DNA of 36,915 nucleotides. Source: Rhodopirellula sp. (GTDB taxonomy: Bacteria; Planctomycetota; Planctomycetia; Pirellulales; Pirellulaceae). Where the stretch lies: assembly GCA_002701385.1 (NCBI GenBank), contig NZVD01000070.1:1-36915 (forward strand), in the 5' to 3' direction. Shown here piece by piece: positions 3,112 through 36,915 of the stretch. Position numbers and translations under genes: made by a program. The notes below the pieces were generated by a model. It was given only the letters and a program-made list of their open reading frames with translations. It searched no databases and was not told the origin of the DNA. Each line of letters starts with the position of its first letter. Position 1 is the stretch's first letter.

Positions 3112-4323
3112 ATGAAGCTCAGGATTTTCATTGCCATCTTCGCACTAGCCCAATTCTCACAGGTGGGGCTCACCGTCGAACCAACCTTGCACTGGAAACT
3201 CGTTCCACTCGCAGTCGATGCGAACGAGGGGATCGATATTGCGGACTTCAACGGTGATGGTAAACCGGATGTAGCTGCTGGTCGATTCTGGTACCAAAAC
3301 CCCGAGTTTCGCCCACGCCCATTACGTAACTTCAAAGATGTTAATGGCTATGTCGAAAGCAACGGCGACTTCGCCTACGACGTTGATGCAGACGGCGTCA
3401 ACGACGTTATTGCCGGAGGATTCTTTTCGACCGAAGTACATTGGTATAAGAATCCTGGAGCGGAAGGGTTACGACTAGGTCATTTATGGGAGCAACGATT
3501 GTTGCTGGATACCAAGGAATCACAAAATGAAGGCCAATTGATGGCGGATCTCAATCAGGATGGGAAACCTGAATGGATTGTAAACACCTGGGCAAAAGAT
3601 GCTCCGATATACGTTTACGAGCTTACAACCAAAGAATCAACGATTGAAGTCATTGAGGCCGGACAAAAGAAAACTATCACTAAGATGGAACCTGCTTTAA
3701 GAAAGAACTTGGTAGGGATGCGGGGAAATGGCCACGGTATGGGCGTCGGTGATATTAACGGTGATGGTTACAAGGACTTGCTCCTGGGACACGGTTGGTA
3801 TGAAAGTCCTGGTAAAGATTGCCTGAATACAACATGGAAGTATCACAACGACTGGCAAATTCATGGTTCGGTACCGATGCTCGTGTATGACGTAAATAAC
3901 GATGGGAAAAATGACATCCTTGTCGGAGAAGCACACGCTCACGGATTATATTGGTGGGAAAATCAGGGCGAGCAGAATGGGACGATCACTTTTGAGAAAC
4001 ACCTAATCGATGAAAAGACTTCGCAATTACACGCATTACACTTGGCGGACTTAAATGCGGACGGAGAGCCCGAACTGATTACCGGCAAACGTTATTTTGC
4101 TCATAATGGCGGAGACAAAGGGGCCCGTGAACCTATTGAAATCGTCTATTACTCGATAGACCGAAAGACAGGAACGTTCTCCCGAAATTTGATTCATCAG
4201 GGGCGCGCGGGAATTGGCTTGCAGATTAGAGCCGCCGACATTGATGGTAACGGTTTTGTTGATATTGCAGTGGCCGGCAAATCTGGAACACATATCCTGT
4301 TTAACCAAGGCCCGCGGAAATAG
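3112..4323 (+). CDS. Secreted FG-GAP/VCBS repeat beta-propeller protein
   Basis: 403 residues with an N-terminal signal peptide (MKLRIFIAIFALAQFSQVGL followed by a likely cleavage site near residue 22). The mature part is built from seven repeats with a D-x-N/D-x-D-G-x-x-D calcium-binding loop, for example ADFNGDGKPD, DVDADGVND, ADLNQDGKPE, GDINGDGYKD, DVNNDGKND, ADLNADGEPE and ADIDGNGFVD, each followed by an aromatic W-Y/W-x-N strand. Seven such units fit a complete seven-bladed calcium-stabilised propeller. Proteins of this type bind ligands or carbohydrates outside the cell; no catalytic motif is visible. It sits between an amidohydrolase and a ThuA-like protein on the same strand. The ribosome binding site is weak, but the signal peptide fixes the start. 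Confidence 0.88.
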   Translation: MKLRIFIAIFALAQFSQVGLTVEPTLHWKLVPLAVDANEGIDIADFNGDGKPDVAAGRFWYQNPEFRPRPLRNFKDVNGYVESNGDFAYDVDADGVNDVIAGGFFSTEVHWYKNPGAEGLRLGHLWEQRLLLDTKESQNEGQLMADLNQDGKPEWIVNTWAKDAPIYVYELTTKESTIEVIEAGQKKTITKMEPALRKNLVGMRGNGHGMGVGDINGDGYKDLLLGHGWYESPGKDCLNTTWKYHNDWQIHGSVPMLVYDVNNDGKNDILVGEAHAHGLYWWENQGEQNGTITFEKHLIDEKTSQLHALHLADLNADGEPELITGKRYFAHNGGDKGAREPIEIVYYSIDRKTGTFSRNLIHQGRAGIGLQIRAADIDGNGFVDIAVAGKSGTHILFNQGPRK

Positions 4324-33520: not shown

Positions 33521-36439
33521 TTATTTCTTGAACATAGGGCTGCTTGGGTCTCCCCTTGAGAGAAGGAATGCCAGTAAATCAAGTACTTCATCTCGGTTCA
33601 GCGTATTGAGCAGTCCTTCCGGCATCAGTGAATTTTTGGAGGGAAATTGTTCGTCAATCATTTTGGTGTCAATCGAAGTAAAATTGCCGGGATCCAACAT
33701 ATTGGTTTGGACCATGATGTTATCACCCGATAGATTGGCAACGCGGCCCGTTACCACTTTGCCGTCTACAGTAATAAACGTCGTAGCCGCATACTGGTCA
33801 CTAATTTCCTTATTTGGCTTCACGATGCTTTCCAACAAATCCTTTTTGCTAAATCGTCCGGAAATCGTAGTCAAATCAGGCCCAATTGCTCCTCCCCTAC
33901 CATTGAAACGGTGACAAGCAAAGCAGTTAGCTTCTCCAAATAACTTCGCACCTCGTTCAAAGTCTCGATCCCTCATCCCTTCTGTCGCCAGTTCAACCAG
34001 TTCCGATAAATCCCATTGTTTAACGATTTCTCGCTTCGCGTAATTGAGAGGATTCGTTTGCTCGAGGCTCTGTGAGATTACATCTGCCAATGACTCAGAA
34101 TCTGCCGTCGACAGACTTGCAACCGCATCTTTTTTAATGTTCTCGAGAAACATGGTGAAACTTGCACCGCCCCGGTAGTTCGCGGCCTGCAAGAACCACT
34201 CAAAATATTCACGGCGTAATTCGGGAGTCCAGCCTTTAAGTTGATGGCGAAGCGTTTTAGCATAGTCTATCTGCTCTTCCTGAGTGGGTGCATTCACCAT
34301 AAGGTTTACCGCCGACGCAGTCACGGTTTCAGACTCCGCATATACTAGCAACTTCAGGACTTCCGAGTTTATTGCCGCATTTGGGGTTGGGAACTTATTT
34401 TCAAGGTATTCCTTGATCTGCATAGCCTCATCAGCATTAGCCGCGCCCAACCTCATAAATACCAATCCGCAAACACGTAACCAGAGTATTTTCTGAGTCG
34501 AATTCAGCTTCGCATAGGGAATATCATAGAGTCGCTTTAAAATTGCTGGTTTAAGCGTTGGGTTGCCTACTCTTGTTAGCGCTAGCATTCCGTTCAGAGC
34601 TACCTGATCGCTAGGGTGGGCGAGAATCTTGTCCTGCCATAATTCCACCGGCTGATGTTCGAGCGCCACTCGACTTGCGAAACGCAAAGCACGGTCGCTA
34701 CTTTCTAGCGTAGGAATCGAGTCGCTGACAGCCTTCTCACCAATAGGACGATGAAATGCTTCAATGGCTCTACGATGTTTCCTCAAAGCAAATTCCTTAC
34801 CTGCAATCTCATGAGATGTGGAATCAGCTTCTCCGTGATAGGTAACTCGATAAAGTCCAGATTTCGTCCTCCGCCCTCCAATTGTGAAGTACAACGCTCC
34901 GTCCTGTGCCCCGACTACGACATCGGTTAATGGCAGTGGCGTACCCGCGATGAATTCTTCCAATTCCCCGCTGTAGGTACTTCCGTCCGGATGTAAATGA
35001 ACTGCATAAAGTTTTCCATAGCTCCAGTCGCAGGCGAACAACGCATTTTGGTACTTCGAAGGAAACTTCGTGCCATAACCAAAACACACCCCAGTCGGAG
35101 ACCCAGGACCTACATTGACAACAGGCGGCACACTATCTGGGTAATAAACCGGCCATTTGCCTGATCCATTCCTCCAGCCAAATTCAGCGCCGCTAACCAC
35201 ATGGCAGATCCTGGTTGGGCGGTACCAAGGAGTATTCACATCCCATTCCATATCAGCGTCATAAGCAAATAATTCACCTTCGCTGTCAAACGCGGCATCG
35301 AACTGGTTCCGAAATCCCGTTGCTAATAGCTCCCAGTTATTTCCCTCCGGGTCCACCTTAGCGATCCAGCCACCTGGCGCGGGAACGCCACGCATAAAAC
35401 CGCGTCCGTAAGTGCGCTCATGAAGTAGATCCTCATCCCAGACAAGAGGTACACGCGAACTATCCATCGCAGTTAACTTGGTGCTGTTGCCACAAACAAC
35501 TACCAGATTATTACCATCTGGATGAGCTAGAATCGCATGAGGACCGTGCTCACCGCCGCCACTTATTTCGCGCAATAGCCGCACATCGTCGAAGGCTCCG
35601 TCACCATTAGTGTCTTTCACACGATACAAACCGGATTTATATTGATTGCCACCGTTGACCATGACATACAACGACTCAAATGCCCACAGCAATCCGTGTG
35701 CACGTCCTAGTTCAATGTCGAGCCTCGAAACATGCGTGTCGGTTGCCGGCTGACCAATTCCTGGTGGTGTTACGCGGTAGAGACTTCCATACTGATCGGA
35801 CACGATCAAATCTCCATTTGGTAATGAGCACATATTGACCCAAGATCCTTGCGCATCCTTGGGGACGTCATACAGCAGCTCAACCTTAAAACCCTTGGCG
35901 ACAACTAACCCGTCTGTGGGCGTGGCCTCAACCTCTTTCAGTAGTAGCGCCGAATCGAATACTTTTTCTGTGACACCAGTCCAGGCCCCGCCGCCGAGTT
36001 GAGCAATCTTAGTGACTGCTTTATATTCCTCTGGAGCCTTGAGAGTGGTCTTCCAACCAGGAACTTCCTTTAACGCTCCTACCCAGGAATCATCTGTCAC
36101 GATCCTCGGGCTTTGCGTGTCTAACTCTAGATCTAATCGGGCTATGAACCCTGCAGGCCCTTCGGCTTCTGCATTAGCCGCGACAACGGCTATAACATTA
36201 TTACCGCGTTTAAGATATTCCTTCACTTCCTTACCAGTAGGATTATTGAAATCAGTGTTCTCACCGATTTTTGTCCCATTAATAAAAACGGAACATTGAT
36301 TGTCGCAAGCAAACGTAAACTTGGCGCCACCAAATCGTCCGCCAGGCACCAATACATTTTTTCGTAGAAAGACCTTCTGATTTTCGGAAGTGGTAACGTG
36401 GGGACCTAACCACACCCACTGAGGAATAGCCTTAGCTAC
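33521..36439 (-). CDS. PVC-type heme-binding propeller protein with C-terminal cytochrome c domain
   Basis: About 972 residues in this frame. Order of domains: a beta-sandwich of about 150 residues (SVFINGTKIGENTDF, carbohydrate-binding-like), a PVC-type/sorbosone-dehydrogenase-like propeller (SWVNMCSLPNGDLIVSDQYG, then HGPHAILAHPDGNNLVVVCG), HEAT-like helices, and a C-terminal c-heme domain with CFACH at 831-835 (numbered from the GTG at 36415) and FNGRGGAIGPDLTTISGRF. Periplasmic electron transfer linked to sugar oxidation is the usual suggestion for the family. The GTG at 36415 is unlikely to be a real start: no ribosome binding site or signal peptide, and the typical domain opening IPQWVWLGP begins upstream of it. 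The frame continues to the A9 run that ends the DUF1080 frame, so this is probably the downstream part of one polypeptide. Confidence 0.88.
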   Translation of the reverse strand, partial: VAKAIPQWVWLGPHVTTSENQKVFLRKNVLVPGGRFGGAKFTFACDNQCSVFINGTKIGENTDFNNPTGKEVKEYLKRGNNVIAVVAANAEAEGPAGFIARLDLELDTQSPRIVTDDSWVGALKEVPGWKTTLKAPEEYKAVTKIAQLGGGAWTGVTEKVFDSALLLKEVEATPTDGLVVAKGFKVELLYDVPKDAQGSWVNMCSLPNGDLIVSDQYGSLYRVTPPGIGQPATDTHVSRLDIELGRAHGLLWAFESLYVMVNGGNQYKSGLYRVKDTNGDGAFDDVRLLREISGGGEHGPHAILAHPDGNNLVVVCGNSTKLTAMDSSRVPLVWDEDLLHERTYGRGFMRGVPAPGGWIAKVDPEGNNWELLATGFRNQFDAAFDSEGELFAYDADMEWDVNTPWYRPTRICHVVSGAEFGWRNGSGKWPVYYPDSVPPVVNVGPGSPTGVCFGYGTKFPSKYQNALFACDWSYGKLYAVHLHPDGSTYSGELEEFIAGTPLPLTDVVVGAQDGALYFTIGGRRTKSGLYRVTYHGEADSTSHEIAGKEFALRKHRRAIEAFHRPIGEKAVSDSIPTLESSDRALRFASRVALEHQPVELWQDKILAHPSDQVALNGMLALTRVGNPTLKPAILKRLYDIPYAKLNSTQKILWLRVCGLVFMRLGAANADEAMQIKEYLENKFPTPNAAINSEVLKLLVYAESETVTASAVNLMVNAPTQEEQIDYAKTLRHQLKGWTPELRREYFEWFLQAANYRGGASFTMFLENIKKDAVASLSTADSESLADVISQSLEQTNPLNYAKREIVKQWDLSELVELATEGMRDRDFERGAKLFGEANCFACHRFNGRGGAIGPDLTTISGRFSKKDLLESIVKPNKEISDQYAATTFITVDGKVVTGRVANLSGDNIMVQTNMLDPGNFTSIDTKMIDEQFPSKNSLMPEGLLNTLNRDEVLDLLAFLLSRGDPSSPMFKK

Positions 36440-36448
36440 TTTTTTTTT
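36436..36448 (-). promoter_or_regulatory. A9 run with dnaX-type slippery heptamer and adjacent stop, possible frameshift site
   Basis: On the reverse strand the frame reads GTA AAA AAA AAG TAG, holding the heptamer A AAA AAG (36445-36439), the canonical -1 slippery sequence of bacterial dnaX, in the correct phase and directly before the TAG. A -1 shift gives GTA GCT AAG and continues into the PVC-type protein without a stop. One extra A by transcriptional slippage, or one missing A in the assembly, has the same effect. Downstream stems are weak nearby (TAGC/GCTA) and a GTGGG/CCCAC stem lies about 19 bases away, further than usual. Confidence 0.5.
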
Positions 36449-36915
36449 ACGAGTTTCTTAAGCTGGACGTCTTTGAACTGAATCGTCATCGGCGCGCCCG
36501 CATGAATCTGCAAAGCCAATACACCTTTGAATTCTCGATTCTTTTCGTCATTGTCCGTAATATCGACCGTGACTAGCCCATTGATCTTATGGATAAGCCT
36601 ATTGCCTACGCAAGTAATTTCAATGGTCGTCCATTTAGTAAGATCTTCCTTTATCACTTCCGTAGTTGTGTCGGTTACCTCGGACTTACCGTCTTTATTG
36701 ACAGTTACCTTTTGCCCCCTTTGAGCGACGATTCCACGTCCGCCCTCGTCATAGAGCATGCCCGTATAAGGTGGATTACCATGGATATCTGCTTGATATC
36801 CTCTGACTCGGAAAGCATTTTCATCGCCGAAGCGCTGACTGCGATATTGCACACCTGAATTATTATTCCCAACAAGTCGGAATTGCGCTCGAAACGTGAA
36901 GTCCTCAACTTCACC
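36436..36915 (-). CDS. DUF1080 (3-keto-disaccharide hydrolase-like) domain, 5' end outside window
   Basis: About 159 residues of a concanavalin-like DUF1080 domain, the family of 3-keto-disaccharide hydrolases and related exported glycan proteins. The frame is open to the last base of the window (reading GEVEDFTFRAQFRL, then NNNSGVQYRSQRFGDE), so a signal peptide and more sequence lie upstream. Family hallmarks are VQYRSQRF, RGYQADIHGNPPYTGMLYDE, the EWTTIE-like KWTTIEITCVGNRLIHKING and the closing GVLALQIHAGAPMTIQFKDV with the conserved Q-x-H-x-G. It stops at a TAG one codon after the A9 run, exactly where the domain ends; the next frame continues with the PVC-type heme protein. In planctomycetes these domains are often on one chain. 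Confidence 0.88.
   Translation of the reverse strand, partial: GEVEDFTFRAQFRLVGNNNSGVQYRSQRFGDENAFRVRGYQADIHGNPPYTGMLYDEGGRGIVAQRGQKVTVNKDGKSEVTDTTTEVIKEDLTKWTTIEITCVGNRLIHKINGLVTVDITDNDEKNREFKGVLALQIHAGAPMTIQFKDVQLKKLVKKK

What the first reader, a model, noticed from the sequence alone, without database searches (positions are those of the whole stretch)
36436..36460. DUF1080 and PVC-heme frames joined by an in-phase A AAA AAG slippery sequence next to a stop
The DUF1080 frame stops one codon after a run of nine A and the next frame is open immediately, with a domain opening (IPQWVWLGP) that lies before any possible start codon. The heptamer phase is exactly right for -1 frameshifting and the stop abuts it, as in dnaX, which would give both a short DUF1080 protein and a long fusion with the heme protein. 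An assembly error of one A in the run is a serious alternative.
Basis: partly seen in the sequence, partly recalled or inferred. Interest (0 to 1): 0.7.

Follow-up and report, generated by a model that had tools for sequence, protein, structure and literature searches.

The report
Conserved slippage site joins two genes
In a genus of uncultured planctomycete bacteria, a run of nine or ten A letters with a stop signal beside it sits between a sugar-enzyme gene and a heme-protein gene, and comparison of species suggests that slipping on that run lets the cell make both a short protein and a long joined one.

Summary
On the minus strand the DUF1080 (PF06439) frame ends GTA AAA AAA AAG TAG, and the -1 frame runs on for 975 codons into a lectin-like, heme-binding protein. 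It is not one genome's assembly slip: 5 of 9 held genomes of the genus have the two-part gene; 5 of 5 keep A9 or A10 there, 4 of 5 with the stop beside the run and the heme part at -1; the fifth (G002, A10) reads straight through. Fourfold sites between the four lineages are about 25% identical, so run and stop look selected. The downstream part has no conserved start codon and no visible signal peptide. No Shine-Dalgarno-like site or shared hairpin was found, and orthologues differ in frame: this fits transcriptional slippage better than dnaX-type ribosomal frameshifting. A lineage control agrees: dnaX has an A9/A10 run in 9 of 9 genus genomes and 22 of 24 examined relatives. Outside the genus, 19 of 23 DUF1080-heme neighbours are continuous fusions; the other 4 are separate genes with their own ATG and signal-like start. 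No RNA or protein data. Probably transcriptional; new member of a known kind.

The parts
36436..36915 (-). 3' part of the DUF1080 / 3-keto-disaccharide hydrolase gene (whole gene 231 aa, ATG at contig position 37131, outside the window), with a signal-peptide-like N terminus (read by eye)
   Evidence: PF06439 1.6e-36
36440..36448 (-). A9 run, the proposed slippage site; the heptamer A_AAA_AAG (36439-36445) is in phase
36436..36438 (-). zero-frame stop TAG directly after AAG
   Evidence: TAG/TAA kept in this position in all five orthologues (in G002 it lies in the frame that an A9 mRNA would use)
33521..36448 (-). -1 frame, 975 codons from KKK: lectin-like domain, PVC-type region, c-type heme domain; no signal-peptide-like start of its own
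35933..36421 (-). N-terminal beta-sandwich of the downstream part (first strand QWVW), GH78 rhamnosidase / lectin-like fold
   Evidence: AlphaFold2 mean pLDDT 88.8; best PDB match 3w5n, E 1.7e-12, TM 0.76 on the query
34886..35638 (-). PVC-type region (TIGR02604, 65.7 bits, under its curated cut-off of 122.2)
33557..33964 (-). putative heme-binding CxxCH domain (TIGR02603, 98.2 bits, cut-off 68.15)

Best explanation
The A9 run at the end of the DUF1080 gene is a programmed transcriptional slippage site. RNA polymerase adds (or drops) an A in part of the transcripts. In this species A9 mRNA gives the short secreted DUF1080 protein ending KKK*, and A10 mRNA gives one long secreted protein in which DUF1080 is joined through a lysine linker to the lectin-like and heme-binding parts, which have no start codon or signal peptide of their own. 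In species G002 the template is A10: there the long form is the templated one and an A9 mRNA would give the short one. Shown here: the sequence arrangement, its conservation and the signs of selection on run, stop and downstream frame. Inferred: that slippage occurs, that it is in transcription, and that both products are used.
For: Run of A9/A10 in 5 of 5 orthologues, stop beside it with the downstream part at -1 in 4 of 5. Fourfold-site identity between the four lineages is 0.18-0.34 (DUF1080) and 0.25-0.32 (heme part), i.e. near random, yet the codon before the run ends in A in all five (GTA, GCA, TCA, GCA, GTA) and the codon after it is GTA or ATA, which makes TAG/TAA; products of the species' own codon frequencies over four lineages are 3.6e-4, 8.2e-3 and 1e-3 for wobble A, AAA AAA and xTA (chosen after seeing the site). 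It is the only A run of 5 or more shared at aligned positions by all five in the two-part gene. The downstream frame stays open over 975 codons in own, G006, G008 and G002; dN 0.043, dS 0.772 in its codons 4-55 between own and G006. No conserved start: the first ATG/GTG/TTG in G006 and G008 would fall in the second and at the fifth strand of the modelled domain. By contrast, 4 of 4 unjoined heme genes next to a DUF1080 gene outside the genus have their own ATG and a signal-like start. No Shine-Dalgarno-like site or shared hairpin. Mixed frame state among orthologues, which Antonov et al. 2013 (PMC3711429, section 10 read) take as the sign of transcriptional realignment. Lineage control: dnaX has A9 or A10 in 9 of 9 genus genomes, with early stops in the slipped frames, and is itself split in G008; 22 of 24 examined dnaX genes of family and order relatives have A9 or A10.
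Against: No RNA or protein data. The in-phase heptamer A_AAA_AAG is itself shift-prone for ribosomes. The hairpin z-score is -2.9 in G008 and -1.8 in G001, and the first 25 downstream codons have the highest fourfold identity of any window (23 of 53; 18 of 48 without the stop-making codon), which could hide an RNA signal. The codon-frequency test was designed after seeing the site and has only four lineages. 4 of 9 genus genomes lack the joined gene; G003 and G007 have a DUF1080 gene alone. G002 shows that a plain fusion is tolerated, so the short form may not be needed.
Confidence: 0.68

Rival explanations
1. Programmed -1 ribosomal frameshifting on A_AAA_AAG, as in E. coli dnaX, gives the long protein from the A9 mRNA.
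For: Heptamer in phase in own, G006 and G001, and A_AAA_AAA in G008; A_AAA_AAG is among the three most efficient heptamers in E. coli when a stimulator is present (PMC4066793, passages seen). Hairpin z-scores of -1.8 in G001 and -2.9 in G008.
Against: No Shine-Dalgarno-like site (2-4 of 6 matches to AGGAGG within 24 bases) and hairpin z-scores of +1.3, +1.4 and +0.6 in own, G006 and G002; without a stimulator the heptamers of that E. coli study gave at most about ten times a very low background; the wobble A before the heptamer is not needed by ribosomes but is kept; G002 is in frame, so the direction is not conserved; dnaX of the same lineage keeps A9/A10 in varying codon phase.
Confidence: 0.2
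2. Phase variation: the genomic run changes between A9 and A10 by replication slippage, switching the fusion on and off between cells.
For: Homopolymer of 9-10; frame state differs between G002 and G008, which are sisters in the tree.
Against: 4 of 5 genomes show the same off state while the downstream part stays open and under purifying selection; runs of the same lengths are found in dnaX, generally an essential gene (recalled), of 31 of 33 examined genomes (9 of 9 and 22 of 24).
Confidence: 0.07
3. Two separate proteins: the fusion has split and the downstream part starts at an internal codon or by translational coupling.
For: A GTG lies 20 bases after the stop in the window; G001 has one near by too.
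Against: No ATG/GTG/TTG in the corresponding place in G006 or G008; the conserved strand QWVW and the peptide before it precede or contain any start; no signal-like start for a c-type heme protein, whereas 4 of 4 truly separate neighbours outside the genus have one.
Confidence: 0.04
4. Assembly or sequencing error in the homopolymer.
For: Metagenome assembly with Ns near by; homopolymers are error-prone.
Against: Four orthologues from four assemblies (own, CALKCC, DEAW, PAPJ) share the arrangement with different flanking letters; the codon after the run that makes the zero-frame stop is kept against codon usage.
Confidence: 0.02

Closest known systems
Thermus thermophilus dnaX (transcriptional slippage on A9)
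   Same: A run of nine A, early stops in slipped frames, two products from one gene (PMC1088944 passages; PMC3711429 section 23)
   Different: There the long form is templated and slippage gives the short one; here the reverse in 4 of 5 species, the same in G002; other protein
Citrobacter rodentium tssM1 (A11) and Shigella mxiE: slippage needed for the long protein
   Same: Stop after a homopolymer, slippage restores the frame; both lengths of TssM1 are made (PMC4256274 passages; mxiE from PMC1088944 passages)
   Different: Run of 11 with the stop 28 bases away in tssM1; here the stop abuts the run; secreted enzyme-cytochrome fusion
E. coli dnaX -1 ribosomal frameshift (A_AAA_AAG)
   Same: Same heptamer in phase, stop close by
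   Different: No Shine-Dalgarno-like or consistent hairpin stimulator found here; frame state not the same in all orthologues
Continuous DUF1080-heme fusions of other Planctomycetota (for example G012 / JAKUOW010000083)
   Same: Same domain order, often a lysine-rich linker
   Different: Read through in one frame; 18 of 19 have no run of 9 or more A in the fetched locus

Membership tests
Programmed transcriptional realignment (slippage) site | Homopolymer of at least 8-9 A at the frame transition, conserved among orthologues | tested here: met
   A9/A10 in 5 of 5
Programmed transcriptional realignment (slippage) site | Orthologues need not share the frame direction | tested here: met
   4 of 5 at -1, G002 in frame; criterion from PMC3711429 section 10
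Programmed transcriptional realignment (slippage) site | mRNAs of several run lengths | not testable with these tools
   no RNA data
E. coli dnaX-type -1 ribosomal frameshift | In-phase X_XXY_YYZ heptamer | tested here: met
   A_AAA_AAG in own, G006, G001; A_AAA_AAA in G008; G002 is in frame and needs none
E. coli dnaX-type -1 ribosomal frameshift | Upstream Shine-Dalgarno-like stimulator | tested here: not met
   best match 2-4 of 6 to AGGAGG within 24 bases before the run
E. coli dnaX-type -1 ribosomal frameshift | Stable downstream hairpin | tested here: inconclusive
   z +1.3, +1.4, -1.8, -2.9, +0.6 for 45 bases in own, G006, G001, G008, G002; not shared; pseudoknots not examined
DUF1080 / 3-keto-disaccharide hydrolase (PF06439) | Score over Pfam cut-off | tested here: met
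   126.6 bits, cut-off 26.8
PVC-type heme-binding CxxCH protein (TIGR02603 domain / TIGR02604) | Scores over curated cut-offs | tested here: inconclusive
   TIGR02603 98.2 over 68.15; TIGR02604 65.7 under 122.2

The most novel reading that the evidence does not exclude
A whole planctomycete order relies on an RNA polymerase that slips on A9-A10. The site is kept in dnaX, and one genus uses the same device to set the ratio of a free secreted DUF1080 enzyme to the same enzyme tethered to a lectin-heme protein, with species flipping between 'slip to make the long form' and 'slip to make the short form' by one A while keeping both products.
Probability: 0.45. Interest if true: 0.72.

Novelty: new member of a known kind. 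Interest (0 to 1): 0.58.

Why it matters
A plain gene finder would call this locus as a short DUF1080 gene plus a headless heme gene, so the secreted fusion would be missed. Conserved slippage outside mobile elements and dnaX has few worked examples among the papers I saw; this one flips between two modes among sister species and so lets slippage be told from ribosomal frameshifting by comparison. The parallel A9/A10 run in dnaX across the relatives suggests that slippage is a general tool of this lineage.

Tried and rejected
Assembly error: rejected because four orthologues from four assemblies share the break. Internal start: rejected because no start codon is conserved. Stimulatory hairpin: folds of 45-120 bases after the run were not consistently below shuffles, though G008 (-2.9) and G001 (-1.8) were lower (45 bases). 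Reduced synonymous change after the site: the first 25 downstream codons show 23 of 53 fourfold comparisons identical (0.43) against 0.14-0.40 in the other windows of the heme part; without the codon that makes the stop it is 18 of 48 (0.375), within that range, so I did not take it as evidence of a structure. Other A9 runs of this genome as further slippage sites: 13 distinct runs lie outside contigs C51 and C27; apart from this one and dnaX, those inside open frames (in L037, L041, L044, L046, L063) show no frame change in three-frame translations read by eye; whether they are conserved was not tested.

Frame-different neighbours outside the genus: of 23 distinct loci with a DUF1080 match just upstream of the heme match, 19 are in one frame without a stop and 4 (L164, L174, L175, L179) are in different frames, 198-281 bases apart. 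I looked at these four again: each heme frame has its own ATG and a signal-like start and no A run of 7 or more before it, so they are ordinary adjacent genes. G001's contig has a stretch of N in the 3' part of the heme gene, so its end was not compared. In the tree, L123, L130 and L116 gave no usable frame with my motif filter and were dropped (11 of 14 rows used).

Literature: searches for Planctomycetes with frameshift and slippage (2 papers), DUF1080 with heme-binding and Planctomycetes (0), 3-keto-disaccharide hydrolase with cytochrome and fusion (0), dnaX with slippage and Planctomycetes (1), dnaX with Pirellula and frameshift (0), Planctomycetota with transcriptional slippage (1, a soil virus paper by its title). 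The library holds open-licence papers only.
Full report
What is there. The window is the first 36,915 bases of an 84-kb contig (G000:C21) of a genome in 100 contigs. On the minus strand the DUF1080 gene (231 aa, PF06439) begins outside the window with a signal-peptide-like segment (my reading of the sequence; no predictor was run) and ends GTA AAA AAA AAG TAG. The -1 frame is open through the same run and continues for 975 codons. Its parts are a beta-sandwich whose predicted structure (mean pLDDT 88.8) matches a GH78 rhamnosidase (3w5n, TM 0.76 on the query) and a Pleurotus lectin, a PVC-type region below its curated cut-off, and a heme-binding CxxCH domain above it. Upstream lie four sulfatases, a PhoD-like phosphatase and a PQQ-type propeller protein; an FMN dehydrogenase gene lies between on the other strand; a DUF1501 gene follows.

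Conservation. A search of 98 relatives, of the 9 held genomes of the genus and of 241 of the family gives five genomes with the two-part gene in this genus: own, G006 (94% identical over the compared 333 residues), G001, G008 and G002 (70-71%). The junctions are A9 G TAG, A9 G TAG, A9 G TAA, A10 TAA and A10 G TAACC. In the first four the zero frame stops and the heme part is at -1; in G002 the frame is continuous (1,200 aa). G003 and G007 carry a DUF1080 gene without the heme part, near a related sulfatase; in G004 and G005 I saw only weaker, paralogue-like matches (G004 is 69% complete). In the tree, G002 and G008 are sisters (support 96/93) inside the genus, so either one break and one return or three breaks are needed. 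Outside the genus, 23 distinct loci have a DUF1080 match just upstream of a heme match: 19 are continuous (4 of these match only from residue 173 on, i.e. without the lectin-like domain), and 4 are separate genes with their own ATG and signal-like start. One of the 19 (L117) has an in-frame A9 in its linker.

Selection. Fourfold sites agree at 0.18-0.34 between the lineages, close to random, and dS is saturated in most pairs. Against this background the run, the A in the wobble place of the codon before it and the xTA that makes the stop are kept in all five. With codon frequencies of each species' own gene, the products over four lineages are 3.6e-4 for the wobble A, 8.2e-3 for AAA AAA and 1e-3 for xTA. 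These figures were computed after seeing the site and treat lineages as independent; they measure strength and are not a clean p-value. The wobble A lies outside the ribosomal heptamer, and the stop-making codon is kept also in G002, where it matters only if an A9 mRNA is made. The pattern A9-R-TAR is found 8 times in the 9 genomes: 5 times here, once inside a lysine-rich frame of G008, and twice in locally A/T-rich sequence of G007 whose genes I did not examine; the reversed pattern is found 0 times.

Why a fusion is made. The downstream part has no conserved start: a GTG in own, one two residues further on in G001, none until 23 residues after the P of PQW in G006 and 50 in G008. In the model's numbering the last two fall in the second and at the fifth strand of the domain. 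The part shows no signal-like start, which a c-type heme protein needs (general knowledge), whereas the four separate heme genes beside DUF1080 genes elsewhere have one. Its frame stays open and is under purifying selection (dN 0.043, dS 0.772 in codons 4-55 between own and G006).

Transcription or translation. For transcription: run length 9-10 throughout, mixed frame states (the criterion of PMC3711429, section 10 read), no Shine-Dalgarno-like site and no shared hairpin. In mRNA terms, A10 gives the long form in own, G006, G001 and G002, and A11 in G008; in each, an mRNA one A shorter gives the short form. Lineage control: dnaX, searched with TIGR02397, has A9 (own, G005, G006, G008) or A10 (the other five) in 9 of 9 genus genomes; own's and G001's matches are partial. 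An added A leads to TGA after 4 codons in 8 of 9, and in the ninth, G008, the template itself is split and an added A opens 225 codons. In family and order relatives 22 of 24 examined dnaX genes have A9 or A10; G060 and G062 do not (30 of 31 such genomes had a match, and loci were given for 24). Stops in the slipped frames of those 24 were not counted. This is the arrangement of Thermus dnaX (PMC1088944 passages; PMC3711429 section 23). For translation: the in-phase heptamer A_AAA_AAG, and a lower than shuffled hairpin energy in G008 and G001. I give transcription about 0.68 and ribosomes 0.2.

What is not shown. No transcript or protein was seen. Whether the short form has its own use is unknown; the DUF1080-only genes of G003 and G007 make it plausible.

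Comparison. As a mechanism it belongs with Thermus dnaX, Shigella mxiE and Citrobacter tssM1. The protein, the stop abutting the run and the flip of mode between sister species are the new points. My searches found no report of it, or of dnaX slippage in Planctomycetes, in an open-licence library only; PMC3711429 did include two planctomycete genomes in its scan (passage), and its supplementary clusters were not seen.

Noticed in passing
G000:C54:47017-47025 (L061, L199); dnaX loci L191-L198 and L200-L223: dnaX carries an A9 or A10 run behind its conserved part in 9 of 9 held genomes of the genus and 22 of 24 examined family/order relatives, with early stops in the slipped frames in the genus: a Thermus-type slippage site that seems general in this order. 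In G008 the dnaX frame is split at the run.
   Followed up: partly
L117 (PBMZ01000160) 3947-3955: An outgroup DUF1080-heme fusion has an in-frame A9 in its linker; one more A would bring a stop within two codons, so it may be a second, independent slippage site or chance.
   Followed up: no
G000 contigs C51 and C27: GC 0.23-0.28 near their A9 runs against 0.42-0.50 around the others; 14 of the 30 A9 hits of the genome lie on C51. Probably contaminating sequence in the assembly.
   Followed up: no
window end 36915; L003:3917 and L003:4091: The window stops next to an ambiguous base; two Ns lie in the DUF1080 gene, one in its signal-peptide-like segment.
   Followed up: no
L097 and L098 (G007, G003): A DUF1080 gene of the same lineage stands alone near a related sulfatase, without the heme part: a natural counterpart of the short form.
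   Followed up: partly
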